A DNA stretch of 64,000 bases. It comes from Desulfamplus magnetovallimortis (GTDB lineage: Bacteria > Desulfobacterota > Desulfobacteria > Desulfobacterales > Desulfobacteraceae). The notes beneath the pieces are model-generated. The model was not told where the DNA came from, did no database searches, and was given only the letters and a program-made list of their open reading frames with translations. The DNA lies in NCBI RefSeq assembly GCF_900170035.1, contig NZ_LT828547.1, positions 56,281 to 120,280 of the forward strand, read 5' to 3'. This document shows positions 25,904 through 42,766 of the stretch, in pieces; the stretch's first letter is position 1; each line of letters starts with the position of its first letter. The translations under genes and the position numbers were made by a program.

Positions 25904-26512
25904 CTAAAGAGTTATACCCGAAAACATCATAAAAGCCATTGCCATAAGCCCTCCAACAATCATTGTTATGCCAAAGCCGTTAAGTCCATCAGGAACATCT
26001 GCATAGCGCATCTTTTTTTTTATGGTTGCCATGGACACAATGGCAAGCATCCATCCTGTGCCGGAACCGGCTCCAAAAACAATTGATTCCATAAGTGTAT
26101 ATTCTCTTTCCACCATGAAAAGTGCTGTTCCAAGAATTGCGCAGTTGACAGCAATCAGGGGAAGAAATACACCAAGAGCTGCATAAAGCACAGGAGAGTA
26201 CTTATCTATTATCATCTCCACTGCCTGAACAATGGCTGCAATAACAGCTATAAAGGTGATGTATTTCAGAAAGCTTAAATCAATATCAGGAAGACCTACC
26301 CATGACAGTGCCCCGGGAGCAAGCATATAGTAGTAGATGAACCAGTTTACAGGAGATGTGATGGTCAGGACAAATATCACGGCACATCCAAGACCAAAAG
26401 AGGTATTGATGTTGTTGGAGACTGCAATAAAGGAGCACATTCCCAGAAAATAGGATAAAAGAATGTTTCCAATGAATACTGAATTTACAAAAAGGGATAT
26501 AAGATCTGTCAT
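25904..26512 (-). CDS. nqrE: Na+-translocating NADH:quinone reductase subunit E
   Basis: 202 residues, the family length, with six membrane segments. Conserved [20 protein letters not shown] near the N-terminus and [18 protein letters not shown] in the middle carry the two cysteines that bind the intramembrane iron centre between NqrD and Nqr[19 protein letters not shown] identifies NqrE rather than RnfA. It is separated from nqrD by a 5-kb kinase gene. nqrF, which normally follows, is not seen downstream: the next DNA is repeats and the convergent ABC operon. Confidence 0.9.
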
Positions 26513-26770: not shown

Positions 26771-29700
26771 TCAATTTTTCAGGTCAGATGCGGTTATGGC
26801 TCTGTTTCTCCCTTGCATTTTGGCGTTATAAAGAGAAATATCAGCAGAATTAAGCCCATCCTGTACCTGTTGTCCAGGCTGTGGAATGGTGTGGATTGCA
26901 CCAAAACTGAGTGTAACATGAGAACTGACATCAGATTTTTTGTGAAGAATTTTCAGTTCCCGAATATTTTTCTGGATCTTCTTTATAATATGGCGCACTC
27001 CTTCGGCACCGGTCTCAGGCAATACCAGTACAAATTCTTCTCCACCATAGCGGGCCACAACATCGCCTGGACGATTGGCAGAGCTGACTATGGAATTGGC
27101 AATCCGACGGAGGCATTCATCACCTGCCAGGTGGCCGTAATAATCATTGTACTGTTTAAAATAGTCTATATCACACATTATCAGGGAGATTGGCGTCTGC
27201 ATGCGCATATGTCTTTTCCACTCTTTTTCAAGGGTATCGTCAAGATATCGCCGATTGAAAACCTGTGTAAGTCCATCAATACTGGATATTTTCTTAAGAC
27301 TTTTATTTGCTTTTTGTAGTTTCTCATTCAGGTTGACCAGTTCGGAGGTTCGTTGTGATACCATTGTCTCAAGTTCATTATAGAACCCTGCATTTTCTAT
27401 TGATATGGCGATCTGTGTGGATAACAGTTCCAGTACCTGAAGATGTTTCCTGGTAAAAGCGTCTTCGAGAAGATTATTTTCCAGATACAAAATTCCCTTA
27501 AGGCGTCCTGAGTTCATCAATGGAAGGGTAAGAGCCGAATTTATGATCTTCTGTCTGAAATATGAGTCTGCGGTAAAATCCCCGGATTTTGAGGCAGCAC
27601 CGAGAAGTATGCTTTCCCGTTTTCTGGCGCAGTAATTTATGAGACTGAGAGGAAAAGAGTCATTTTGAGTTGCATCGGCTGTTGCTTGCGGAATCGACAC
27701 CTCAGCCCAGTCCAGACGGGCTTCGGCCTTGATAACCCAGCGGTCGTCGATTTCAGAGAGAAAAAGTGAACGGCTGGCACCGGCATTTTCCATAACAACT
27801 CTCATCATCTTTCCAAGTAGTCTGTTAAGATTTATTTCACTTGCCAGGGTCTGGGATGCCTGAACAATGGAGATCATATCAAAAGATACAACATCGCTGT
27901 TTCTATTAAGAGTGTTTAAAAAAGTTGCCTCAGTCAGAGGGAAATTGTATCGGTCAGAGGCGGAGCCCGAGGGTAAATCCAGCATCAGGTCGGCATATCT
28001 ATTTTCAATATGTTTCACTTTGGCGAAAGCCCCCCATTTTTCATAGGCAAAGCGTGCGTCATTAATATGATATGACGCAGATAAATTCATTTTCTGCTCA
28101 AAGAGGAACTCTGCACAGCGCTCATGTGCCAGAGCTTCATTATTTATATAACCTGCATGTTGAGCTTCTGCAATGGCAAGATCGTAATATCTGAGAGCAT
28201 CCCAGTTGCGGGATTCTGCTCGTGCTCGCTCCGCTTCAACAAGTAAATATTTATGTTTGAAATTGACGGGGCTGTTATCTGCCCAGACTTTCATTTTGTT
28301 CTGATACTCTGCAACTGCATCCAGTACCTGATTTAGCCTCTCCTTGTCGAATTTTTCTCGACAGGCAAGTAGGGTTAAAGATGCATAAAAAATCATTTCA
28401 GGTACTTTTGCCTGCCCTTGAGCAATTGATGAGACAAAATCAACCTTGTCAATCATCTCCAAAGCGTCATCTATGTAGCCAAACCAGTAAAGGCTGCGAA
28501 GTTTTGCGACATAGTAATAAGAGAGCGCCAGGGGATTTTTTTTGTATTTTTTTAGAAAAGTCTCTTCAGTAAAATTATCATCATCAAATGTTTTATCACT
28601 TTTAGTTAGCCCTGACAACTGAAGCAGAGGGTTCAGACAAGCCGGTCTGACAAACTCATCAAGAACCACTGGTGCGTTATTTTGCAAAAATGGCAGATAA
28701 CGTTTGGCTTCAATCAAGAGCTGCTGACAGTTCTGCCCCCATATTGTCGGGTCTGAAATCATGAATTCTGCGCAATACCCGGCATATGTCCAGTCTCCGT
28801 TTTCAACCAGAAGAGGAAAGGAGTTCAAACTGTAATCATGGGATGATGCCAGAGGTGCTCTCCAGTGGTTTATGAAGACAGAAAAGAGCAAATAGACCTT
28901 GCCGCGCATAAGAAGATCATCAAATTGTTCCGCAAGTTTGATGGCAGTTTTTCCAAAGCGATGTCCGGTTTCATATTGACCCAGTAACGCTATGCAGACA
29001 AAGGCATAATTCATGTAGGCATAGGATGTGAGATGATTGTTGCCATATTGGAGAGAAATGGCGGTCATTTTACAGGATGACCAGGCAACAAGTTCGAGAC
29101 GGGAATCAAGGTAGGCGCTGGTCCACAATTCCATGAGAATATCCATAATGGACGCATGGTGCGCAGAAGTCATCTTTGGGGCATGTTTCAGGCTTTCAAT
29201 GCTTCGGGAGCCAAGCAGTTTTGAAACCGTTTCCAGTTCGGTTTGCAGCAAAGATGAGATATCCGCCTCTCTGATATCCACGTCAAGAAGGGAAAGTGCC
29301 TCTTTTTGAATATCTACAGCACCTGCATAATCTCCCTCCAGATGAGAATGCAACATGCGGATCATGTGAACTGAGACACTATCTTTCCTTGAAGTTGCGT
29401 TTTTCAGCAAAGTTTGAAAAACATTTTCAATGTTGCCTGTTTCACCAGCGTAATGGAGACAAAGAGCCAACTCACAGTGGATGGAAAAGGTCACCTTGTA
29501 ATAGTCCTGCCAGCTTTCCTCCGGCAGGAGCGTAACTGCTGTTTGGAGATAGCGGATTGCAGATGCATATGCTGTGGCTTTTTTAGCCAATTCACCTGCA
29601 TCCCTGTTGAGTGTTGCAAGGGTTATCCGTTCATTTTGGTCTGTAATCAGGGCAATTGCCGAGTTCAGGTTATTAACAACGTCAAAAATTTTTTCTGCTC

Positions 29701-31813
29701 CAGATCTGCTTTCATAATTTTTGAGAAGTCGTCTTCCGATACGGTAATGAATCTCTTCAGGGTTCTGAATCAATGTATAACATGCCTGCTGGATTCGATC
29801 GTGGGAAAATCGAAAGCTTGCCATATCATGTGGAATAATCAACCCTTCAGCAATGGCCTCACTCAAATCTTCAACAATCTTTTTTTCTTCAACTTGTGAA
29901 ATAACACTGAGTGTTTCGACATTGAATGCATTACCTGTACAAGCTGCAAATTGGAGAATTGACCGGGTTTCTGGTGACAATGTTTTGATTTTGGCTTCCA
30001 TAAGTTGCACAACATCTTCTGGAAGCTTCCGGCGATGAATTTTTTCAATGTCCCATTTCCAGCGTGCGGTTCCTGAATCAAAAAAAATGAGCTCTTCAGA
30101 GTAAAGTGTTTTTAGAAACTGTGTTACAAAGAAAGGGTTTCCAAGTGTTTTAGTGAAGATGAGTCCAGCCAGGGCTTCAACATCCTGGGAGGTTGTGTGC
30201 AGTGAATCCCTGCACATTGCCACTACATCTGCCCACTCAAGATTTCCAACCTTGATTGAGTCAGTGTATATGGCTTTTTTGTTTAATGATTCCAGTAGTA
30301 AAATGAGTGGATGGGAAGAAGATATCTCATTGTCTCTGTATGAGCCAATCAAAAAGAGGCTTGATTGCATGGCGTCTGTCAGAAGGGTAGAAAGCAGGTT
30401 AAGGGAGCCAGGGTCTGCCCATTGAAGGTCGTCAATGAAAATAACGAGGGGTGAGTCCTCCGTGGCTGCTGAACGGAAAAAATTCCGACAGGTATAATTG
30501 AATCGATTTTGCGCTTCAAGTCCTGACAATTCCGGCACATCCGGTTGAGGCCCGATGATAAGTTCCAGAGAGGGAAGCATCTCTATCATTAATTGTCCGG
30601 TTTTTCCCAAAGATTCCTTTAGTGACAGGGATATGGAGTCAAGTCGATCCCTGCTTTCGGAAAGCCACAGATTGACCAGTCTGGAAAGTGCCTGTTTAAA
30701 GGCATAATAGGGTATGGTGCGTTGATTCTGGTTAAACTTACCTTCTACAAAATAGCCTCTGTTTTGCGTAACGGGTTTCTGTATCTCCTTGACAAGGGAT
30801 GTTTTGCCAGTGCCGGAATAGCCTGAAACAAGAAGAATGTTGGAGTGATTATTTCTCTTTGAAATAAATTTATTGAATGTGTCGTATAGGAGTGTGCGTT
30901 CTTTTTCACGTCCGTAAAGTTTCTGGGGAAGGAAAAAGATGTTGAAGATATCATTACGACCGATTTTAAAAGAAGTAATAGTTCCTTTTTTAATAAGTAA
31001 TTCACGGCAGGTTTCAAGATCGGATTTCAGCCCGATTGCATTTTGATACCGTTGTTCAGCCGTTTTTTTCATCAGTTTTGACACTATTTCCGAAAGAACT
31101 GGCGGGATATCCGGTTTTATTTCAGATATCATCGCTGGCGGAGTTGTCATGTGGGCATATAGCATTTCAAGTGGATTGGTCGCTTTAAATGGGAGACGGC
31201 CTGACAGAAGCTCGTACATGGTCACACCGAGAGAGTAGAGATCCGTGCGGTAATCAATCTGGCGATTCATCCGGCCACTCTGTTCAGGGGAGATGTACGC
31301 CAAAGTCCCTTCAAGGGTGGAGGATTGACTCAATCCTAAGTTGGTTGGCGATAAAAGCGATGCAATGCTAAAGTCAATCAACTTGCAGACGCCTGTTTTC
31401 GGATTATATACGATATTGGAAGGAGTTATATCTTTATGAATTATCCTTTTTTCATGAATTCGACAGAGGGTATCTGCCACAGATATGAAAATGTTCAATA
31501 GTTCCAACAATTGAAATTGATGTTGTCCTGCAAGGATTCTCAGTGAATCTCCATCAAAATCTTCGGTAATAAGAATCAGGTTGCTGCCTTGTGCCTTTAA
31601 TTCATAAGCACCTATCACAGATTCGATGTCAAGAGAGGAAAGATGGCGATATTCATTTCGGTAGCGGGTCAGATCCTTGATATCCGGCCGTTCTTTTCTC
31701 AGTTTCTTTAGAACAACGTGTTTGCCATCCTTAACACGTTTCCCACGAAAAACTATAGATGTGGCACTTTCGTAGATTTTTTTTTCCTGAATGTAGTCAT
31801 TGTTTTCATTCAT
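26771..31813 (-). CDS. Multidomain signalling protein: Ser/Thr kinase - AAA ATPase/TPR-like - GAF - GGDEF
   Basis: 1680 residues. The kinase (about 8-285) has VVLKKL (lysine), HKDITPSNIVY (catalytic Asp), LIDFSIAS in place of DFG, and GTLAYISPEQSGRMN. An AAA/STAND-type ATPase follows: Walker A SGYSGTGKTS and Walker B LVIFIDDLQWAD. Residues about 650-1330 are helical, TPR-like. GAF is near 1350-1490, then a coiled coil (VSQRTSELVNLNEKLQKANK). The GGDEF domain has an intact GGEEF at 1590-1594 and an RPGD inhibitory site five residues before it, so it probably makes c-di-GMP. The architecture is known from PknB-AAA hybrid kinases. It sits inside the nqr locus between nqrD and nqrE, same strand. 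Confidence 0.92.
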   Translation of the reverse strand: MNENNDYIQEKKIYESATSIVFRGKRVKDGKHVVLKKLRKERPDIKDLTRYRNEYRHLSSLDIESVIGAYELKAQGSNLILITEDFDGDSLRILAGQHQFQLLELLNIFISVADTLCRIHEKRIIHKDITPSNIVYNPKTGVCKLIDFSIASLLSPTNLGLSQSSTLEGTLAYISPEQSGRMNRQIDYRTDLYSLGVTMYELLSGRLPFKATNPLEMLYAHMTTPPAMISEIKPDIPPVLSEIVSKLMKKTAEQRYQNAIGLKSDLETCRELLIKKGTITSFKIGRNDIFNIFFLPQKLYGREKERTLLYDTFNKFISKRNNHSNILLVSGYSGTGKTSLVKEIQKPVTQNRGYFVEGKFNQNQRTIPYYAFKQALSRLVNLWLSESRDRLDSISLSLKESLGKTGQLMIEMLPSLELIIGPQPDVPELSGLEAQNRFNYTCRNFFRSAATEDSPLVIFIDDLQWADPGSLNLLSTLLTDAMQSSLFLIGSYRDNEISSSHPLILLLESLNKKAIYTDSIKVGNLEWADVVAMCRDSLHTTSQDVEALAGLIFTKTLGNPFFVTQFLKTLYSEELIFFDSGTARWKWDIEKIHRRKLPEDVVQLMEAKIKTLSPETRSILQFAACTGNAFNVETLSVISQVEEKKIVEDLSEAIAEGLIIPHDMASFRFSHDRIQQACYTLIQNPEEIHYRIGRRLLKNYESRSGAEKIFDVVNNLNSAIALITDQNERITLATLNRDAGELAKKATAYASAIRYLQTAVTLLPEESWQDYYKVTFSIHCELALCLHYAGETGNIENVFQTLLKNATSRKDSVSVHMIRMLHSHLEGDYAGAVDIQKEALSLLDVDIREADISSLLQTELETVSKLLGSRSIESLKHAPKMTSAHHASIMDILMELWTSAYLDSRLELVAWSSCKMTAISLQYGNNHLTSYAYMNYAFVCIALLGQYETGHRFGKTAIKLAEQFDDLLMRGKVYLLFSVFINHWRAPLASSHDYSLNSFPLLVENGDWTYAGYCAEFMISDPTIWGQNCQQLLIEAKRYLPFLQNNAPVVLDEFVRPACLNPLLQLSGLTKSDKTFDDDNFTEETFLKKYKKNPLALSYYYVAKLRSLYWFGYIDDALEMIDKVDFVSSIAQGQAKVPEMIFYASLTLLACREKFDKERLNQVLDAVAEYQNKMKVWADNSPVNFKHKYLLVEAERARAESRNWDALRYYDLAIAEAQHAGYINNEALAHERCAEFLFEQKMNLSASYHINDARFAYEKWGAFAKVKHIENRYADLMLDLPSGSASDRYNFPLTEATFLNTLNRNSDVVSFDMISIVQASQTLASEINLNRLLGKMMRVVMENAGASRSLFLSEIDDRWVIKAEARLDWAEVSIPQATADATQNDSFPLSLINYCARKRESILLGAASKSGDFTADSYFRQKIINSALTLPLMNSGRLKGILYLENNLLEDAFTRKHLQVLELLSTQIAISIENAGFYNELETMVSQRTSELVNLNEKLQKANKSLKKISSIDGLTQVFNRRYLDDTLEKEWKRHMRMQTPISLIMCDIDYFKQYNDYYGHLAGDECLRRIANSIVSSANRPGDVVARYGGEEFVLVLPETGAEGVRHIIKKIQKNIRELKILHKKSDVSSHVTLSFGAIHTIPQPGQQVQDGLNSADISLYNAKMQGRNRAITASDLKN

Positions 31814-31851: not shown

Positions 31852-31952
31852 GCACTACTGCTTCTTCAAGTTTAAAATGTCGGGGCTTTTTGAGGCAACT
31901 TAAGGGGTTTTGAGAGTTTTTACCCGACAATCAACCTTGAAGAAGAAGACTA
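31852..31952. repeat. R5 palindromic repeat abutting the nqrD stop codon
   Basis: CTGCTTCTTCAAGTTTAAAA then TGTCGGGG on the left and ACCCGACAATCAACCTTGAA then GAAG on the right form long inverted arms around an A/T-G centre. Its right end runs into the nqrD stop codon, so on the minus strand it follows nqrD directly and precedes the kinase gene, where it could stop or attenuate transcription. Confidence 0.8.
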
Positions 31953-32591
31953 TTGGCCGGTTTTCTCCTCATGGGAAGCACCAGGAAGGCTGTTTTTAAG
32001 CCAGACCAGAAGCCCGATTACAAAAAATGCACCAGGGGCAAGAACCATCAAACCCATGTTGCTGTAACCTGCATCAGTGAGCCACTGGGGAATTACAGGG
32101 ATACCGATTATTTTGCCTGAGCCAAGAAGTTCTCTTATAAACGCCACAATGACAAGAATCAGGCCATAGCCTGCTCCGTTTCCAAGGCCATCCATAAGGG
32201 AGGGCAGGGGAGGGTTTGCAAGAGCAAAGGCTTCAGCCCGTCCAAGTACAATGCAGTTGGTTATGATAAGGCCCACAAAAACCGAAAGCTGTTTGCTTAT
32301 ATCATAGAAAAAAGCTTTTAATATCTGATCTGTTACAATAACAAGGGAGGCTATAACTGTAAGTTCCACAATGATTCTTATGGTTGAGGGGATTTTACTT
32401 CTCATTATGGATATGATTAAGTTTGAGATGCCTGTTATAAGGGTCAATGCAATGCCCATGACAAGGGCTGTGTGCATCTGGACAGTTACGGCAAGTGCAG
32501 AGCAGATTCCAAGTACCTGATAGGCCACAGGGTTCTCTTTCCATATTCCCTTTGTAAAGGTTTGCCATAGTTCTGATTTTGCAGAAGTCAT
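31950..32591 (-). CDS. nqrD: Na+-translocating NADH:quinone reductase subunit D
   Basis: 213 residues, six membrane segments. [18 protein letters not shown] at the N-terminus, then [17 protein letters not shown], where the cysteine helps bind the iron centre shared with NqrE, and [19 protein letters not shown]. The counterpart cysteine is in [20 protein letters not shown]. It follows nqrC by 12 bases. The NqrD/RnfE choice rests on the NqrB and NqrC neighbours. Confidence 0.92.
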
Positions 32592-32603: not shown

Positions 32604-33419
32604 TTAAAAGCTGTTCTGTCGGAATTTTACCGATACTGTTTCGTAGCGCTCAAGATTTTCACGAAGTCCCTCGGATAGATACTTGCCGGTGAGGGTTGCT
32701 CCGCTAATTCCATCTACATAATGTTCCTTTTTTTCGGCTGGCAGATCATCTGAATCTCCTTTTGCAATTGTCACGGATACAAAATCTCCGGAATCATTGA
32801 TGATCTTTTTTCCAATAAAGTTATTGCCAAACCAGTTTTTTTCAATCTCTCCGCCAAGACCGGGAGTTTCCGAGTGGCTGTAAACCGTAAAACCGGCAAT
32901 GGTCATGCCATCGTTTTTCACTGCAAGATAGCCCTTGATTTTCCCCCAGAGTCCCCGAGATTCAATAGGTATTATATATGCCATGATTTTACTGGTGCCG
33001 GGCTTTTTATAAAGATAGAGAGATAGCTTTTCTTCCACTACCTCTTCAATGTTTTTCTGATAAATTGCCTTGATTTTATCTTTTGACATATTTGCATCGG
33101 ACTTTAAGATGGCAGCAGCTTTGAGTATATTTTTCTGGCGGTCGATTTCCATGTTTTCAAGCTGCAATGGTTTAAGTCCAACAGATGCACCTGTCAGAAG
33201 GATTGAACATACAAGGCAGAGAATAGCTGCAAATTTTAATGCATAAATTCGTTTTTCTATAGCTTGTTGTCCTTTATTAGCAGCTTTGGTATTAGCTGCA
33301 TCGGTATCATCAGCTTCGGTATTAACAGCTTTGGTACTAACAGTGACTTCACCATTAAGAGCAGTTGCTCTATTGTCTGTCAATTCAGTTTTATCAGCAG
33401 TTTCTTTTTTATCAGCCAT
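32604..33419 (-). CDS. nqrC: Na+-translocating NADH:quinone reductase subunit C with low-complexity N-terminus
   Basis: About 271 residues. The flavin attachment motif SGATLT lies near the C-terminus (VDGISGATLTGKYLSEGL), where FMN is bound through a phosphoester to Thr. One membrane anchor (about residues 60-82, FAAILCLVCSILLTGASVGL). The first about 50 residues are a Thr/Ala/Asp/Asn-rich repeat (ADKTELTDNRATALN, then AVNTEADDTDAANTKAANKG), which is unusual for NqrC. The start ATG 33419 overlaps the nqrB stop by eight bases and has AAAAAGGAT upstream; the longer frame is less likely. Confidence 0.92.
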   Translation of the reverse strand: MADKKETADKTELTDNRATALNGEVTVSTKAVNTEADDTDAANTKAANKGQQAIEKRIYALKFAAILCLVCSILLTGASVGLKPLQLENMEIDRQKNILKAAAILKSDANMSKDKIKAIYQKNIEEVVEEKLSLYLYKKPGTSKIMAYIIPIESRGLWGKIKGYLAVKNDGMTIAGFTVYSHSETPGLGGEIEKNWFGNNFIGKKIINDSGDFVSVTIAKGDSDDLPAEKKEHYVDGISGATLTGKYLSEGLRENLERYETVSVKFRQNSF

Positions 33420-34668
33420 TGGGGATCCTTTTTGCCACAGCAATTTTTATGGTGATGTGGTCAAGCAATGGAGAGAAAACGTTCATGAAAAGTATGGAAA
33501 GCATCACGCCTTCAACATAAGCAGGATTTACAGCTCGGATAAGAACTGTGAAAAAACCTATAAGAAAACCGTATATCCAGCGTCCTGCATCTGTACCAGG
33601 AGCTGAAACAGGATCTGTTGCCATGTAAGAAATACCAAGGGCAAAGCCGCCGGAAAAGAGATGATAAAGAGGCCCTGCAGAAAACCATGTCCCCTGGGGG
33701 CCTGGAAGGAGCTTGAAGATCATTGATGTAATAACAACTCCTGCAATGCCGCCGATGATTATCCTGTAGCTTGCAATGCGTATAACCATCAGGAAAATTG
33801 CCCCTGCAAAGCAGAGAAGTGCGGAGGTCTCTCCTATACTTCCCGGGTGAAGTCCTGTCAGCAAGGTTTTAAGGTCAAATCCTGCCTGATGCAACGTGGC
33901 TTCAATATATCCGGTGCTGCCACCAAGGGAAAGTGGCGTTGCTCCACTTAAAGCATCAACAAGCACCTGATCAATCTGATTTTTGACAATCGGTATGGCC
34001 TGTGAAATTCCGGTGATTCCATTCTGTATTGAAGCACCTGCTTCTGTTATTTTTTCAGGGATCACACGCCACACAGCATTGCCTGACATGCTTGCAGGGT
34101 AGGAAAAAAAGATAAACGCCCTTGCAGTAAGTGCAGGGTTTAAAAGATTTCGTCCTGTTCCTCCAAACACCTCTTTTCCAATGACAATTCCAAAGCTCAT
34201 ACCAACTGCCACCTGCCAGAGGGGGATGGTTGGCGGAAGTGTCAATGGAAAGAGAAGACCTGTTACCAGAAGCCCCTCTGTCACCTCATGTCCCCTGATT
34301 GTGGCAAAGAGGATCTCCCAGAAAAAACCAACTGTATATGAGACAATGATAATCGGTACCACATGGAGGGCACCAGTTGTGAATGTCTTGAAGAAACCGA
34401 TCTGTTCAGGCAAAGATGCAGCAAGATAGTATTGATATCCCGCATTATACATGCCGAAAAGGGTTACAGGCAGAAGTGCAAGAATAACAAAGCTCATGAA
34501 TCTTTTGAGATCCAGATGATCCCTTATGTGCGGTGCGCATCTGTTTACCGGAGATGGCAGAAAGAAAAAGGTTCTGGTTGCCTGATATATGCCAAAAAAA
34601 CGGCTCATACTGCCACCGGGTTTAAAATAGGGGTCGATTTTTTCAAACAGGTATTTTAATTGTTTCAT
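33412..34668 (-). CDS. nqrB: Na+-translocating NADH:quinone reductase subunit B
   Basis: 418 residues. KYLFEKIDPYFKPGGSMSRF at the N-terminus and VNRCAPHIRDHLDLKRFMSF are NqrB, not RnfD, features. The FMN attachment site is SGATPLS in LVDALSGATPLSLGGSTGYI. GKEVFGGTGRNLLNPALTARAF and YMATDPVSAPGTDAGRWIYG are conserved. About ten membrane segments. It is the core Na+-channel/riboflavin subunit. Upstream (on the minus strand) is a 260-base gap with the R7 tandem repeat, so it may have its own promoter apart from nqrA. Confidence 0.95.
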   Translation of the reverse strand: MKQLKYLFEKIDPYFKPGGSMSRFFGIYQATRTFFFLPSPVNRCAPHIRDHLDLKRFMSFVILALLPVTLFGMYNAGYQYYLAASLPEQIGFFKTFTTGALHVVPIIIVSYTVGFFWEILFATIRGHEVTEGLLVTGLLFPLTLPPTIPLWQVAVGMSFGIVIGKEVFGGTGRNLLNPALTARAFIFFSYPASMSGNAVWRVIPEKITEAGASIQNGITGISQAIPIVKNQIDQVLVDALSGATPLSLGGSTGYIEATLHQAGFDLKTLLTGLHPGSIGETSALLCFAGAIFLMVIRIASYRIIIGGIAGVVITSMIFKLLPGPQGTWFSAGPLYHLFSGGFALGISYMATDPVSAPGTDAGRWIYGFLIGFFTVLIRAVNPAYVEGVMLSILFMNVFSPLLDHITIKIAVAKRIPNG

Positions 34669-34928: not shown

Positions 34929-35771
34929 TTAGTAATCACTGATCTGTCCGGCTACGAAAGTTCCTATATAAATCATCCATAAGATAAGAAAAATATGCAA
35001 AACATCATTTTCAGAGAACCAGATTCCCTTTGTCCACAATTTTTTTGTAATGCCCTTTTTATTATAAATATAATAGGCCATCATTGTACAAAAAAGCAAA
35101 AACCATGCACCGAGAAGCGCCAAATCCATGGAATAGTTGAATTTGTAGTAGCGCAAGATATTCAATAAACAGAAAAAAATGAAAGCCGGAGTTGAAATCC
35201 ACACCATAAGTTCAAAGGTGATGAGGGATTTCACCGGTAATATTCCTCCGATAATCACTAAAATTGCATATATGGCTGAACTCAGTATGGCATACACAAA
35301 CAGCACCTGCTGTAGCGTTCCTTCTGTACAGGATAGTGCTATTGCAACCACCATCGCATTTATACTGATTTGCTGGAATATAAGGTAGATAAGTTCCCAC
35401 CAGCTTGTCCATGAGCATGTTTTTTTCCCGGCACATTTGATTTCGTAGCCAAATGCCTGGTAGCTTGTCCCTGCAAGAAGTGCCCCGATGCCCCACAACA
35501 AAAGTGAAATGCCCCACCATAAACGTGACTCTTCTCCATTGTTACTCTGGAAAAAAAACAGAGCTGTTCCAATGGTTAAAAAGCCCAGAAAAAAGACCCA
35601 GAAAGTTGAAAGTGGCTGACTTATAACAATTTGCTTAGAGGCGATTCTGATTACCATGCAGGGTTGTTTCATACACCACTTTTCTGGTGTCAGCTCAGGA
35701 TCTTCATGTGGAATTGAATCCAGTCGATTGACAACAGATAACAATTTTTTTGAAAGTTTTTGTAGGAACAT
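34929..35771 (-). CDS. Multi-pass membrane protein of unknown function
   Basis: 280 residues with about seven predicted membrane segments from residue 55 on (FWVFFLGFLTIGTALFFF, ISLLLWGIGALLAGTSYQAF, VLFVYAILSSAIYAILVIIGGI and others). Charged N-terminal 50 residues precede them. A short pair, GTSYQAFGYEIKC and WWELIYLIFQQISINAMVVA, recalls DUF6962-like proteins, but this is not secure. It lies within the nqr locus, between the alcohol dehydrogenase and nqrB, same strand. No catalytic motif seen. Confidence 0.65.
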   Translation of the reverse strand: MFLQKLSKKLLSVVNRLDSIPHEDPELTPEKWCMKQPCMVIRIASKQIVISQPLSTFWVFFLGFLTIGTALFFFQSNNGEESRLWWGISLLLWGIGALLAGTSYQAFGYEIKCAGKKTCSWTSWWELIYLIFQQISINAMVVAIALSCTEGTLQQVLFVYAILSSAIYAILVIIGGILPVKSLITFELMVWISTPAFIFFCLLNILRYYKFNYSMDLALLGAWFLLFCTMMAYYIYNKKGITKKLWTKGIWFSENDVLHIFLILWMIYIGTFVAGQISDY

Positions 35772-35820
35772 ATGTATAGTAATCTTATTTTAGGCAAATA
35801 GTGTTTTTAAGTATAGTATT

Positions 35821-35907
35821 CCATATAACGTACATGGCTGATGACCGCCACAATCGAAGATATGAAAGTCGTTTTAAAAACAGGATGTTACCGAGACTTT
35901 CATATAA
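35821..35907 (+). repeat. R8 dispersed repeat copy
   Basis: CCATATAACGTACATGGCTG, ATGACCGCCACAATCGAAG, then GAAAGTCGTTTTAAAAACAG and CGAGACTTTCATAT. The outer ends (ATGAAAGT / ACTTTCAT) are inverted. The tandem pair at 63815-63983 is the same family in reverse. Confidence 0.8.
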
Positions 35908-35908
35908 A

Positions 35909-36085
35909 ACTCAAAACTGACACCTATGATCTTTTAAGCCTTGTCAACACTGTCTGAATCAGGATACCCAGGATTAACAGGATAAGGCAGGATTATCTAT
36001 CCTGAACATCCTATCCATCTTGGTTATCCTGATTCAGACAAATTCAATAGCTAACGAAAAAGCCATCAAGGTGTCGATTTTGAGT
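35909..36085 (+). repeat. R1 nested palindromic repeat, copy 4
   Basis: Outer arms ACTCAAAACTGACACC and GGTGTCGATTTTGAGT, inner arms TGTCTGAATCAGGAT and TATCCTGATTCAGACA; 177 bases, close to copies 1 and 6. Confidence 0.9.
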
Positions 36086-36086
36086 A

Positions 36087-36178
36087 TAAAATTGAATTGG
36101 CAAGCATAATGTAGGGGCAACCCTATGTGGCTGTCCTTCAAAGTTGAGATTAAAAAATATTTTTCTGGAAGTCTATAG
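36087..36178 (+). repeat. R2 dispersed repeat copy
   Basis: AAAATTGAATTGGCAAGCAT, a GGGGCAACCCTATGTGGCTG centre and ATATTTTTCTGGAAGTCTAT end match the copies at 6806 and 39311. Confidence 0.8.
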
Positions 36179-36234
36179 GTGAACATAAATTTTTTCCCAT
36201 TATTTCTTGAGGCTTAACCGGAAGAAATATTTGT

Positions 36235-37392
36235 CTATGCACTTACATCATCAACTGGAGGAGGAATCAGGACGAATTTTCCCACATGCATTTTTTTTGT
36301 GAATTCCTGTTGTGCCTGGACAATGTTTTCAAGTGGAAATGTTTTTGCCAACAGGGGCTTTATTTCACCTTTTTCGATATAGGAGACAAGGTTAGGGAAA
36401 ACAGGTTTATCCCACGCAGTACATCCTATAAGTGTCAAATCTTTTAAATAGAAGTCACGCATATCAAGATTTACAATGGGTCCGGCAATAGCACCTGAAG
36501 ATACAAAGCGTCCTCCTCTTTTCAAGACCTTGAGCATTCCTCCAAAGGCTTCTCCTGCAACATTGTCAATAACAACATCCACAGATTTTTCCCCTAAAAT
36601 GTCCACAATATCTTTTTCACGATCAATTACCTGATCCACACCTATTCTCTGTACTTTTTCAAGTTTAGCTTTGCCTGCCAAAGCTGTTACAACTGCTCCG
36701 CGTCGTTTTGCAAGTTGTACAGCAGCAGAGCCTACACCTCCTGAAGCTCCAGCTATCAAGACGTGCTCACCTTTAGCCACCTCTGCTCGGTGAATCATAT
36801 TTTCGGCTGTACCATAGGCACATGGGATGGTTCCAAGCTCGGCATCAGTCCAATCACACTTCACAGGAAAGATTTCTGTTTCAGGCACTTTGACAAACTG
36901 TGCAAATGCGCCGTCAAAATCAGAAGCCATCCAGATATTTTCCAATGAATCCCATCCTTGACTTCGCATACAGGAACGAACCAGTACCCGTAAGCCCAGG
37001 ATACTCTCATTGCCCCCTGGTGCAACAGCAACCACTCGTCCGCAGCAATCTGTGCCCTGAATAAATGGAAATGGGGTTGCCTCGTTCCAGCCGCCATCTC
37101 CCTGTTGTTTGGCATCCAGCTTCTCTTTTTCAGCAGTTGTAAGAGATTCTGTTCCTGTCGTGACTTTTGAAGAGTACCACCCAAGGCGGGTATTGATTTC
37201 AGTATTATTTATTCCAGCAGCCAGGACATTCAAAAGAACTTCGTTTGGTGCAAGTTCCGGAATCGGAACATCTCGGTAATCAAGTTTTTCATAACCACCA
37301 TTGCCTGTTGTGACAACTGCTTTCATTGTTTTTTTGCAATCTCTGATATCAAAGCGATCTTTTGCGTTATTACTCCTGCTATTTGTTTTCAT
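36235..37392 (-). CDS. Zinc-independent MDR alcohol dehydrogenase / quinone reductase-like protein
   Basis: 385 residues, medium-chain dehydrogenase fold. N-terminal GroES-like part: MKAVVTTGNGGYEKLDYRDVP shape with GTDCCGRVVAVAPG. The cofactor fold has IAGASGGVGSAAVQLAKRRG (residues about 210-230) and VVIDNVAGEAFGGMLKVLKR, like NADPH:quinone reductase and similar enzymes. The catalytic Zn ligands of classical alcohol dehydrogenase are not obvious. It lies in the nqr locus between nqrA and nqrB, same strand, with R1/R2 repeats at its 3' side and R1 copy 5 at its 5' side. The physiological substrate is unknown. Confidence 0.82.
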   Translation of the reverse strand: MKTNSRSNNAKDRFDIRDCKKTMKAVVTTGNGGYEKLDYRDVPIPELAPNEVLLNVLAAGINNTEINTRLGWYSSKVTTGTESLTTAEKEKLDAKQQGDGGWNEATPFPFIQGTDCCGRVVAVAPGGNESILGLRVLVRSCMRSQGWDSLENIWMASDFDGAFAQFVKVPETEIFPVKCDWTDAELGTIPCAYGTAENMIHRAEVAKGEHVLIAGASGGVGSAAVQLAKRRGAVVTALAGKAKLEKVQRIGVDQVIDREKDIVDILGEKSVDVVIDNVAGEAFGGMLKVLKRGGRFVSSGAIAGPIVNLDMRDFYLKDLTLIGCTAWDKPVFPNLVSYIEKGEIKPLLAKTFPLENIVQAQQEFTKKMHVGKFVLIPPPVDDVSA

Positions 37393-37481: not shown

Positions 37482-37679
37482 ACTCAAAATCGACATCTTA
37501 TTGCTTTTTCAGAAGTTATTGCATTTATCTGAATCAGGACAACCAGGATGGATAGGATGTTCAGGATAGAAAGGATGTTCAGGATAGCTATAATCCTGCC
37601 TTATCTTTGTTAATCCTGGGAATCCTGATTCAGACAGTGTTGACAAGGCTTACAAGATCAATAGGTGTCAACTTTGAGT
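37482..37679 (-). repeat. R1 nested palindromic repeat, copy 5 (reverse orientation, with internal duplication)
   Basis: ACTCAAAATCGACATCTTAT left and ATAGGTGTCAACTTTGAGT right; inner arms ATCTGAATCAGGACAACC and GGAATCCTGATTCAGACA. The centre contains a doubled GGATGTTCAGGATAG segment (37555-37586), so this copy is about 20 bases longer. It overlaps the last codons of nqrA by about 20 bases. Confidence 0.9.
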
Positions 37680-39220
37680 TTATAGTATTGTTCCTTTGTT
37701 CTCTGCATGATAGCGGAAAGATCAATTTTTGATGGACAGACACAACTGCAAAGCCCGCACAATGTGCAGTCCAGAAGACCCATCTGGATAACCTCTTCCA
37801 TCTCCTCTGCATGGGCAGCTTTCATTATGAACTGAGGGAGTAGATCCACTGGGCACTTCTTGTCACATATGCCGCAGTTGATGCAGGCACGCTCTTCTCC
37901 ATGCAGATTTATGTCGGCATTGACTGCCGTAGGTGAAAGAGCCGACAGAAAGGTTCTTGATTCACTCATGCTTCCAGTGCCTGGAGTGAGAAACCCAAAA
38001 AAATGCTCGGTTTGAGAGCAATCAAGAACAATGGCACTGTATTCACCTGCTGCCATGTGGCCTCTGTAATCATCATCCTGAGTGAGGTCGTCTCTGTGCT
38101 TTCCGGCTTTTATATTTTCCCTTTTTCTGGCATGACGACCGGAAAAGATTCCGCCTGTAATAACACTTTTGCCATCAGGAACCTTTTTGGTCAGTTGAGT
38201 AACAGGTGTGCCGAGAATCGACCTCATATGACATGGTTTTTCAACAGTGCCTCCTCCTGTGGTGAATACTCTTTGTACATCATATATACCTCTTCCAAAA
38301 AGAGCACCAATTGCAAGGAGATCCTGGGGATTAATGGTTACGCTTCTGTTCCAGGAGCTATCAGGTTTTATCTTGTACAAAATGACACCTGGATCTCCTG
38401 CTGGCCATTCACTATCTGTAAGATGGGTTATGTGTTCTTCAATCTTTACAAGATTTTTGATCTGATCTTGAGGTGCGGCTACCACAATATCAGCAGCAAG
38501 TTTTTTAATTGCGGCAATTCCCGTTATAAAGTCAGCTTCCCGATCCTTTAAAATGGTTGATGCACATGGAGAGAAACTATCCCCTGGTTGCAATGAGACA
38601 ATAAGTGCCGGAAAACCATATTGTTCAGATGCTTTGTTTGATTCCTCTTCTCCACTGGATGATGGATTAGTGGTTGTTATTTTAGTGTTTTTTGTTTCTG
38701 CTATATCCATAAAAGGAAATTGGAGGAGCATCTGCCACATACCTGCCTGTTTAAGGATTATTTCAATATTTGCGGCGGAAAAGGAGTCTGACAATTGCGG
38801 TAATAAATTGTGGGGCAAGGATTTTAAGCCATTAGAATGTTTTTCCTCAGAAACAGGGCTGGCATTTGAAATAAGGGTGCTGATATTTGATAAAACCTGT
38901 GATAATGTTTCATCCATGATATCTTTATTATCAAGACGGATTACAATCTCTTCAATTACCCGTCTTGGACCAAAATGGATATTGATAATCTCACCAGAAA
39001 CGGGTGAAAGATATTTGATTTCTGGATTGCGTTTATCTTCAAAAATAGCAGTTCCCTTGTGCACTTTATCATTTGGCTTTACAAGCAGTCTTGGTTTAAT
39101 ATGGGGAACAAGGGATGGCATAAGAGCTACAGTATCCGGAGGTTCAAGGTTAATTACTCTTGTTGCCGGTGTATTTATGAGCAGTGAGTTAAATTTTTTG
39201 CCGGATTTAATATATTTCAT
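37658..39220 (-). CDS. nqrA: NqrA with an intact C-terminal double 4Fe-4S ferredoxin domain
   Basis: 520 residues, against about 445 in typical NqrA. The N-terminal part (PRLLVKPNDKVHKGTAIFED, FGPRRVIEEIVIR) and the middle (INPQDLLAIGALFGRGIYDV, RVFTTGGGTVEKP, VITGGIFSGRHA) are NqrA-like. The C-terminus has two complete clusters, CxxCxxCxxxCP at 446/449/452/456 (CINCGICDKKCP) and 485/488/491/495 (CTLCGLCSCVCP), like RnfC. Vibrio-type NqrA keeps only a degenerate remnant of this domain. A Ser/Glu/Thr-rich insertion lies near residues 180-200. It is the first nqr gene on the minus strand; the next, nqrB, is 3 kb away. Confidence 0.85.
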   Translation of the reverse strand: MKYIKSGKKFNSLLINTPATRVINLEPPDTVALMPSLVPHIKPRLLVKPNDKVHKGTAIFEDKRNPEIKYLSPVSGEIINIHFGPRRVIEEIVIRLDNKDIMDETLSQVLSNISTLISNASPVSEEKHSNGLKSLPHNLLPQLSDSFSAANIEIILKQAGMWQMLLQFPFMDIAETKNTKITTTNPSSSGEEESNKASEQYGFPALIVSLQPGDSFSPCASTILKDREADFITGIAAIKKLAADIVVAAPQDQIKNLVKIEEHITHLTDSEWPAGDPGVILYKIKPDSSWNRSVTINPQDLLAIGALFGRGIYDVQRVFTTGGGTVEKPCHMRSILGTPVTQLTKKVPDGKSVITGGIFSGRHARKRENIKAGKHRDDLTQDDDYRGHMAAGEYSAIVLDCSQTEHFFGFLTPGTGSMSESRTFLSALSPTAVNADINLHGEERACINCGICDKKCPVDLLPQFIMKAAHAEEMEEVIQMGLLDCTLCGLCSCVCPSKIDLSAIMQRTKEQYYKLKVDTY

Positions 39221-41476: not shown

Positions 41477-42766
41477 CTATTGCAATATCTCTTCGACAAC
41501 TTCCTGAATTGCTTCATTACTTAGATTGCATCCAGTATCTTTTTTGATAACTAACCGAATTTTATTAATAACATCCTCTGTGAGAATAGCTCTTGTTATG
41601 CTTTCATGGCTACGTGCTTTTATTTCATTCCAGGTATTTTCTAGCAATCCTTTACGAGTCATTCCGTATCTGGAGATAAGAACAAATTTTTTAGCATCAT
41701 CTCTACTTAATTCTGGAAGTAAATCAATAGAAAAGAGCAAATTGGCTTCAACTTTTTCTTGAGTTGATATGCGATATAGTTGCCAAGTTACAAGATTAGT
41801 TAATAAAGCCCATTTTATTCCGGAATAAGCCCCATAAGAAGTCGCTTGAAAAATATGTTTTTCTCTCAGAGACATCCCTGCTTTTTTAGCCTCTACCACC
41901 ATGATATCTGTATCATTAAGTGATAGCACATAGTCTGCCTTTCTACCTTGTATCTTTTGCTCTGCTTTTACTTCTTCAATTCTATAATCCAGTACTTCCA
42001 TCAAAATTTTATCTAAAACCATGCGAGTGTTGCTTTCATTTTGTTTTTTCTCTACTGCGGTATTAATTTGTGGAATAAACTGCTTTATTTGCTCAATTAT
42101 TTGTTCAGTATGTTGTTCTAATTTTTTTTTAGGCGAACGTTTTGTTTTTCTGGATAGATTTGGTGATTGAGTTGTTTTGAATTCTGAATCGTTACTAATT
42201 TTATTCTGATCTGATTCAACTTTCACACCATAAGCAGAAGTAATAACTTCTAATCCACCATTATATCCTTGCCCTACTGCTCTAAATTTCCATTTTTCTT
42301 GGTACTGATATATTTCGCCTATTATCAAAGCAACTTCATTATTAATTTCTTCAATATCAAATCTGATTATTTCGTAATCATTATCTTTTTGCATTATCCT
42401 AATATAAGCATTTTCTATCATGCTAAAATTAATATCTCTATTTTCTTCACTAACAATAGTTGCAACAAATTGAATCTTATTTATATCTTTTGGAATTTTA
42501 GATAAATTAAGAGTAAAACAACACATGTCATCATCAGAATTTGCATCTTCATATAACACTATACAACAATTTGGGCCTTCTGGTTGATTGTAAAAAATAA
42601 AATCCTTATCATTTCTGACATAACCGTCTTCATTAAGCATGAATGCACTAATATCAACATCAAAATCATTATTTTTAGACCAGCCTAATCCGACAGTAAT
42701 TTCATCAAGATTTTGATTTTTGTACATTAATAATGAATTTGCCCCTTTTTGTAATCTAACTGTCAT
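41477..42766 (-). CDS. TerD domain fused to PD-(D/E)XK nuclease-like (HsdR N-terminal type) domain
   Basis: 429 residues. Residues 1-182 are a complete TerD domain: WSKNNDFDVDISAFMLNEDG, DDDMCCFTLNLSKIPKDINK, and the closing GEIYQYQEKWKFRAVGQGYN; the Asp residues are those expected to bind Ca2+. A basic linker (about 200-216, RKTKRSPKKK) follows. Residues 245-345 look like an HSDR_N-type nuclease: E257, D278 (KADYVL), then E292-A-K294 (VVEAKKAGMSL) and Q307 (FQATSYG), a PD-(D/E)XK pattern. The C-terminal 80 residues are helical. The gene is clearly more AT-rich than its neighbours. It lies in the mla operon on the opposite strand, with no other ter gene and no methylase nearby. Confidence 0.85.
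   Translation of the reverse strand: MTVRLQKGANSLLMYKNQNLDEITVGLGWSKNNDFDVDISAFMLNEDGYVRNDKDFIFYNQPEGPNCCIVLYEDANSDDDMCCFTLNLSKIPKDINKIQFVATIVSEENRDINFSMIENAYIRIMQKDNDYEIIRFDIEEINNEVALIIGEIYQYQEKWKFRAVGQGYNGGLEVITSAYGVKVESDQNKISNDSEFKTTQSPNLSRKTKRSPKKKLEQHTEQIIEQIKQFIPQINTAVEKKQNESNTRMVLDKILMEVLDYRIEEVKAEQKIQGRKADYVLSLNDTDIMVVEAKKAGMSLREKHIFQATSYGAYSGIKWALLTNLVTWQLYRISTQEKVEANLLFSIDLLPELSRDDAKKFVLISRYGMTRKGLLENTWNEIKARSHESITRAILTEDVINKIRLVIKKDTGCNLSNEAIQEVVEEILQ

What the first reader, a model, noticed from the sequence alone, without database searches (positions are those of the whole stretch)
37658..39220. NqrA retaining two complete 4Fe-4S motifs
The protein is NqrA-like through its length but ends with two CxxCxxCxxxCP clusters, as in RnfC. 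Vibrio-type NqrA keeps only a degenerate version of this region. It may be an evolutionary intermediate between Rnf and Nqr, or an Nqr able to take electrons from a ferredoxin.
Basis: partly seen in the sequence, partly recalled or inferred. Interest (0 to 1): 0.7.

Follow-up and report, generated by a model that had tools for sequence, protein, structure and literature searches.

The report
Sodium-pump subunit keeping ancestral iron-sulfur clusters
A sulfate-reducing bacterium carries a sodium-pumping NADH dehydrogenase whose NqrA subunit still has the two iron-sulfur cluster motifs of its Rnf ancestor, and this form turns out to be widespread and probably ancestral, so that the textbook cluster-free NqrA looks like the later derivative.

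Summary
Confirmed: window 37658-39220(-) encodes a 520-aa NqrA with two complete CxxCxxCxxxCP motifs. It belongs to a Na+-NQR: nqrBCD and nqrE lie in the window, nqrF on another contig. The genome also has two rnf gene sets. It is not an oddity. In its class 200 of 389 genomes hold the eight-cysteine pattern, against 210 with NqrA. A genome-wide pattern scan found 83 NqrA-like hits with 13 phylum names. Trees built without the Fe-S domain separate RnfC from NqrA and make cluster-bearing NqrA a grade, from which the Vibrio/Bacteroidota cluster-free type arises, probably by one loss (NqrB tree). RnfC's FMN/NAD signatures are gone in Fe-S NqrA, yet NqrF and the NqrB quinone-site extension are already present. 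So cluster loss came last, against the published order of events. The ferredoxin idea stays open: no partner gene is conserved beside nqr. Most likely the clusters form a second electron port from NqrB riboflavin to a soluble carrier (inferred). New variant of a known kind.

The parts
37658..39220 (-). nqrA, 520 aa, with C-terminal two-[4Fe-4S] ferredoxin domain
   Evidence: model mean pLDDT 85
37733..37885 (-). span coding residues 446-496, the two CxxCxxCxxxCP motifs of NqrA
   Evidence: coordinates computed from residue numbers
33412..34668 (-). nqrB, 418 aa, with the N-terminal extension found in NqrB and not RnfD; over the nqrB equivalog cut-offs
32604..33443 (-). nqrC, FMN-binding subunit, over the TIGR01938 cut-off
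31950..32591 (-). nqrD, over the equivalog cut-offs
25904..26512 (-). nqrE, over the TIGR01940 cut-off; separated from nqrD by a 5-kb signalling gene
26771..31813 (-). Ser/Thr kinase-AAA-GAF-GGDEF protein lying between nqrD and nqrE; not part of the complex
34929..35771 (-). ORF without any Pfam or NCBIfam match between nqrA and nqrB
36235..37392 (-). zinc-binding dehydrogenase / quinone reductase-like gene between nqrA and nqrB

Best explanation
This is the NqrA subunit of a Na+-translocating NADH:quinone oxidoreductase that has kept the C-terminal two-[4Fe-4S] ferredoxin domain of its RnfC ancestor while losing RnfC's FMN/NAD site. Shown: identity of the subunits, the eight cysteines and their conservation, the phylogenetic grade, the early presence of NqrF and of the NqrB N-terminal extension, and the lost FMN/NAD motifs. 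Inferred: both clusters are assembled and redox-active, and the nearer one sits about as far from NqrB riboflavin as in Rnf (11.7 A there). Electrons then enter from NADH through NqrF and cross to riboflavin in NqrB. From riboflavin they can leave either to menaquinone in NqrB or, through the NqrA clusters, to (or back from) a soluble one-electron carrier such as a ferredoxin that docks where NAD+ once bound. The Vibrio-type pump later lost this second port.
For: Subunits and Fe-S domain. Eight Cys in 200 of 389 class genomes against 210 with NqrA. The Fe-S domain is the best conserved part of the protein within the Desulfobacteria set (mean pairwise identity 0.65 against 0.37-0.46 elsewhere; in cluster-free NqrA 0.51 against 0.39-0.43). 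Trees: RnfC and NqrA separate at 100/100, cluster-bearing NqrA paraphyletic, all-Fe-S-as-one-clade rejected with AU p 1e-40; the NqrB/RnfD tree agrees in outline. 22 of 23 Fe-S NqrA loci with 5.2 kb or more downstream have an NqrF-like gene; 0 of 36 RnfC loci do. NqrB extension. FMN/NAD motifs lost. Fold: V. cholerae NqrA Z 41.9, RnfC Z 25-27.5. Riboflavin to RnfC cluster 11.7 A (PMC9588780, passages).
Against: No conserved partner gene near nqr (30 neighbourhoods), so the soluble carrier is a guess. AlphaFold places no cofactors, and no complex was built. The C-terminal domain is also the best conserved part of cluster-free NqrA, so part of its conservation may serve the contact with NqrB. 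The NCBIfam nqrA cut-offs are not reached by the window protein (197 of 321 bits; 291 of 450).
Confidence: 0.5

Rival explanations
1. The clusters are present but structural or redox-sensing: they hold the NqrA C-terminal domain on NqrB and carry no catalytic current. The enzyme is an ordinary NADH:menaquinone pump.
For: FMN/NAD site lost in the Fe-S NqrA; no conserved partner gene; cluster-free NqrA occupy the same place; the C-terminal domain is also well conserved without clusters.
Against: All eight Cys at RnfC spacing occur in NqrA-like proteins with 13 phylum names and in 200 of 389 class genomes; a purely structural cluster would be expected to drift more (inference).
Confidence: 0.28
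2. One reading: reduced ferredoxin donates to the NqrA clusters, and electrons reach menaquinone through NqrB riboflavin (ferredoxin:menaquinone activity), bypassing NqrF.
For: The cluster domain is ferredoxin-like; nqr lies near a 2-oxoacid:ferredoxin oxidoreductase-type gene in 3 of 30 neighbourhoods and near a gene family that includes citrate synthase in 7 of 30.
Against: Entry at riboflavin would bypass the NqrF-to-NqrC part of the path that is thought to drive pumping, wasting a large potential drop (inference); the cell already has two Rnf gene sets for ferredoxin; the neighbourhood signal is sparse.
Confidence: 0.15
3. The protein is really an RnfC, or an NqrA whose Fe-S domain was re-acquired from an RnfC by recombination.
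For: Same cluster spacing as RnfC; the RnfC model matches over residues 441-512 (80 bits, cut-off 246).
Against: AU test rejects window with RnfC. The Fe-S domain alone is 69% identical to its nearest NqrA and 27-28% to the two RnfC of the same genome, and all 60 Fe-S NqrA domains group apart from RnfC, support 0.69.
Confidence: 0.03

Closest known systems
NqrA of Vibrio cholerae Na+-NQR (PDB 8a1u, 7xk3, 8a1y)
   Same: Whole-length fold (8a1y: Z 41.9, 2.1 A over 438 residues), NQRA_N and NQRA_2nd domains, place in an nqr gene set with NqrF.
   Different: V. cholerae NqrA has no cofactor (PMC12174285 and PMC11889175, passages) and lacks six of the eight cysteines.
RnfC of Rnf complexes (PDB 7zc6, 8ahx, 9eri)
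   Same: C-terminal domain with two CxxCxxCxxxCP motifs at the same spacing; same fold (Z 25-27.5).
   Different: RnfC keeps GGATFP and NGxECEP FMN/NAD signatures, which this protein lacks; 27 of 36 RnfC loci show rnfB and none nqrF.
RnfC of the Rnf2 type of Desulfobacteraceae (D. toluolica type; PMC5109826, passages)
   Same: Reported there to lack the NADH-oxidoreductase and soluble-ligand domains and so to need another electron partner; a parallel loss of the NAD site.
   Different: Belongs to an Rnf with a large RnfB; my genome's likely copy (L179) is a long, unstable branch in the tree.

Membership tests
NqrA (Na+-NQR subunit A) | NQRA_N and NQRA_2nd domains over Pfam cut-off | tested here: met
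   72 and 60 bits, cut-off 25 each
NqrA (Na+-NQR subunit A) | Over the curated NCBIfam nqrA equivalog cut-offs | tested here: not met
   TIGR01936 197 of 321; NF003761 291 of 450. These models reject most Fe-S NqrA: only 12 of 389 class genomes exceed NF003761. I call it an NqrA by domain content, descent and gene context, not by these equivalogs.
NqrA (Na+-NQR subunit A) | Phylogenetic place inside NqrA, outside RnfC | tested here: met
   100/100 split; AU p 4e-7 against window with RnfC
NqrA (Na+-NQR subunit A) | Encoded in a genome with nqrB-F | tested here: met
   nqrB, C, D, E in window; nqrF at G000:C7, 484 bits, cut-off 295
NqrA (Na+-NQR subunit A) | No redox cofactor (as described for the solved NqrA) | tested here: not met
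   Eight conserved cluster cysteines; cofactor content itself cannot be tested here. This is why it is filed as a variant.
RnfC | Two [4Fe-4S] motifs in the C-terminal domain | tested here: met
RnfC | FMN/NAD-binding signatures | tested here: not met
   GGATFP and NGxECEP columns not conserved
RnfC | Over rnfC cut-off | tested here: not met
   TIGR01945 80 of 246 bits
Na+-NQR complex | Na+ pumping, NADH:quinone activity | not testable with these tools
   needs biochemistry
Na+-NQR complex | Maturation factors ApbE and NqrM in genome | tested here: inconclusive
   ApbE present (288 bits); NqrM not found, but the search rang in no control genome either

The most novel reading that the evidence does not exclude
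Cluster-bearing Na+-NQR is a distinct, ancestral class of the pump with a branched electron path: riboflavin in NqrB feeds menaquinone on one side and, through the NqrA clusters, a low-potential carrier on the other. It would work as a sodium-coupled NADH:(menaquinone, ferredoxin) enzyme, possibly bifurcating or confurcating, and would be the working intermediate through which NQR evolved from Rnf.
Probability: 0.13. Interest if true: 0.88.

Novelty: new variant of a known kind. Interest (0 to 1): 0.62.

Why it matters
NqrA is described as cofactor-free with no assigned function, and the published origin scenario (PMC4014512, passages) puts cluster loss before NqrF recruitment. Here NqrF-like genes and the NqrB quinone-site extension already accompany cluster-bearing NqrA in many phyla, so the clusters were probably lost last. 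This gives NqrA a likely ancestral redox role, supplies sequences that bridge NqrA and RnfC in one alignment (which that paper could not make), and offers a biochemically testable intermediate. It also means that the Nqr of marine sulfate reducers, described in one genome paper as identical with that of Vibrio (PMC4046663, passages), may work differently.

Tried and rejected
Placement within RnfC: rejected. Fe-S domain borrowed from the genome's own RnfC: rejected. All Fe-S NqrA as one clade: rejected. A conserved partner gene beside nqr: 30 neighbourhoods clustered, none found; the most frequent non-nqr families were in 8, 7 and 7 of 30. A link to ferredoxin through 2-oxoacid:ferredoxin oxidoreductase genes: 3 of 30, too few. 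NqrM: uninformative.

Results against my reading: in the 98-row tree the genome's second RnfC fell on the NqrA side as a long branch, so RnfC was not clean there; I left it and other rows, long branches among them (for example L173, L090, L104, L112, L116, L082, L100, L127), out of the 54-row tree. The rows of both trees were picked by hand from the fetched loci. In the NqrB tree the cluster-free rows need 2 changes, not 1, because L093 and L158 sit among them with support 86; so two losses are possible. Support for the cluster-free clade is 88/78. Two early members (L079, L169) exceed the rnfC cut-off as well, so the NqrA/RnfC border is blurred there. The label Myxococcota among the 13 phylum names rests on 3 'Deltaproteobacteria' titles and is doubtful. 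Cluster-motif position C491/C495 of cluster-free NqrA shows that part of the site persists.

Not in print, within this library only: searches gave no paper that, in the passages I read, reports clusters in NqrA. Passages (not whole texts) were read of PMC4014512, PMC12174285, PMC5109826, PMC4046663, PMC2702500, PMC9588780, PMC10643135, PMC11887813 and PMC11889175; the other papers were seen only in search listings.

Full report
WHAT IS THERE. The ORF at 37658-39220 on the minus strand encodes 520 aa. It has the NqrA N-terminal barrel and second domain (Pfam 72 and 60 bits, cut-off 25) and, at its C-terminus, a Fer4 dicluster domain with two complete CxxCxxCxxxCP motifs 39 residues apart. The closest solved sequences are V. 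cholerae NqrA (E 2e-34), ahead of RnfC (E 9e-11, Fe-S part). The alignment shows directly that the Vibrio protein lacks motif 1 and half of motif 2.

THE COMPLEX. nqrB, nqrC, nqrD and nqrE (each over a curated equivalog cut-off) lie downstream on the same strand. They are interrupted: a dehydrogenase gene and an unknown ORF lie between nqrA and nqrB, and a 1680-aa kinase/GGDEF gene between nqrD and nqrE. A normal nqrF (404 aa, 484 bits) lies on another contig. In a congener (L181, G382) nqrABCDE are together. The genome also has two Rnf gene sets and one ApbE. So the protein belongs to an Nqr gene set with all six subunits, beside Rnf and not instead of it.

HOW COMMON. In its class 210 of 389 genomes match an NqrA model at E 1e-30, and 200 of 389 hold the eight-cysteine pattern. 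By eye, ten NqrA genomes lack the pattern; I read the protein in four of them (five loci), and all five are Vibrio-type cluster-free NqrA. All 30 class loci fetched first carry the eight cysteines. Outside the class, a pattern that was specific on my own loci (38 of the 58 sequences then held matched, window included; no RnfC locus and no cluster-free NqrA did) was scanned over one genome per species. Of these, 83 are NqrA-like, 36 RnfC-like and 1 unassigned. The 83 carry 13 phylum names (Thermodesulfobacteriota 39, Planctomycetota 17, the others 1-3 each; 10 without a phylum name). By contrast 25 of 25 inspected Bacteroidota NqrA (of 34 genomes with a match among 148) are cluster-free, as are the inspected gamma, Pirellulaceae and Chlorobiota copies.

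PHYLOGENY. With the Fe-S domain columns left out, a 54-row tree splits RnfC from all NqrA at 100/100. Cluster-bearing NqrA form a grade: Fraserbacteria/Acetothermia first, then Brocadiia and relatives, then a Planctomycetota-Spirochaetota-Kiritimatiellota clade, then a clade (100/100) that holds Desulfobacteria (window included, 99/99) and, separately, Cloacimonadota and two unnamed bacteria leading to the cluster-free NqrA, which form one clade (88/78). Forcing all Fe-S NqrA into one clade costs 149 log units (AU p 1e-40); forcing the window into RnfC costs 305 (AU p 4e-7). The 98-row tree and the NqrB/RnfD tree agree in outline, with the exceptions told under Tried and rejected. The Fe-S domain by itself also groups with NqrA and not with the genome's own RnfC. 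Retention with late loss is therefore better supported than re-gain.

ORDER OF EVENTS. RnfC's FMN/NAD signatures (GGATFP, NGxECEP and neighbours) are lost in the Fe-S NqrA, partly even in the earliest ones; that these stretches bind FMN/NAD is recalled, not from a call. NqrB of cluster-bearing operons already has the N-terminal extension that RnfD lacks and that forms the quinone site in Vibrio (PMC12174285, passage); in the earliest row, L079, it is only partly recognisable. NqrF-like genes stand downstream in 22 of 23 such loci that have room, and in 0 of 36 RnfC loci. One early operon (L169, Brocadiia) pairs an NqrA that still exceeds the rnfC cut-off with an NqrF of 485 bits. The published scenario (PMC4014512, passages) has RnfB loss make RnfC non-functional, with cluster loss, before NqrF recruitment; my order is FMN/NAD site lost and NqrF and quinone site gained first, clusters lost last.

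STRUCTURE. The AlphaFold model (48 sequences, mean pLDDT 85, residues 441-500 about 84-97 by blocks of ten) matches V. cholerae NqrA at Z 41.9 and RnfC at Z 25-27.5. Cofactors are not modelled.

HOW IT MOST LIKELY WORKS. In Rnf, electrons pass from RnfD riboflavin to the near RnfC cluster over 11.7 A, then to the second cluster, FMN and NAD+ (PMC9588780, passages). In V. cholerae NQR riboflavin reduces quinone at 11.6 A (PMC10643135, passages). A cluster-bearing NqrA should therefore give riboflavin two possible partners, quinone and cluster. Because FMN and NAD site are gone, the cluster chain must end at a soluble partner or be non-catalytic. I prefer a second port to a ferredoxin-like carrier (0.5 for the whole statement) over a structural role (0.28) and over one-way ferredoxin input (0.15). 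Gene neighbourhoods do not decide: a family that includes citrate synthase is near nqr in 7 of 30, a 2-oxoacid:ferredoxin oxidoreductase-type gene in 3 of 30.

NOVELTY. A new variant of a known kind. Recent papers state that NqrA lost or lacks cofactors (PMC11889175, PMC12174285; passages) and that the Nqr of a Desulfotignum is identical with Vibrio's (PMC4046663, passages). I found no report of clusters in NqrA in the searches named under Tried and rejected; most subscription papers are not in that library.

Noticed in passing
window 26771-31813 and 34929-37392: The nqr genes of this genome are broken up by a 1680-aa kinase/GGDEF gene and two other genes, and nqrF is on another contig, whereas a congener keeps nqrABCDE together (L181).
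   Followed up: partly
L080 4241-4891: In an Acetothermia Fe-S nqr operon a protein joins the NqrF N-terminal 2Fe-2S part to the Fe-S domain of RnfB; it looks like a chimera of the two input subunits.
   Followed up: partly
L064 2469-3425: Desulfofustis: NqrF N-terminal 2Fe-2S part fused to a NuoE-like domain, suggesting a complex I-type NADH module on an Nqr.
   Followed up: partly
L082, L100, L123, L171: Brocadiales-type Planctomycetota: short NqrA (about 350 aa where complete) with all eight Cys; in L123 a 491-aa protein with two Rnf-Nqr domains (NqrD-NqrE fusion) and a 559-aa NqrF-like protein.
   Followed up: partly
L191 and L205 (G684, Pirellulaceae): One genome carries both a cluster-free Vibrio-type NqrA and a cluster-bearing NqrA.
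   Followed up: no
L240 6250-10999 and L184 1-4270: 2-oxoacid:ferredoxin oxidoreductase-type genes with flavoprotein partners lie directly beside nqr, on different sides in two genomes.
   Followed up: partly
window 41477-42766: Fusion of a TerD domain with an HSDR_N nuclease-like domain.
   Followed up: no
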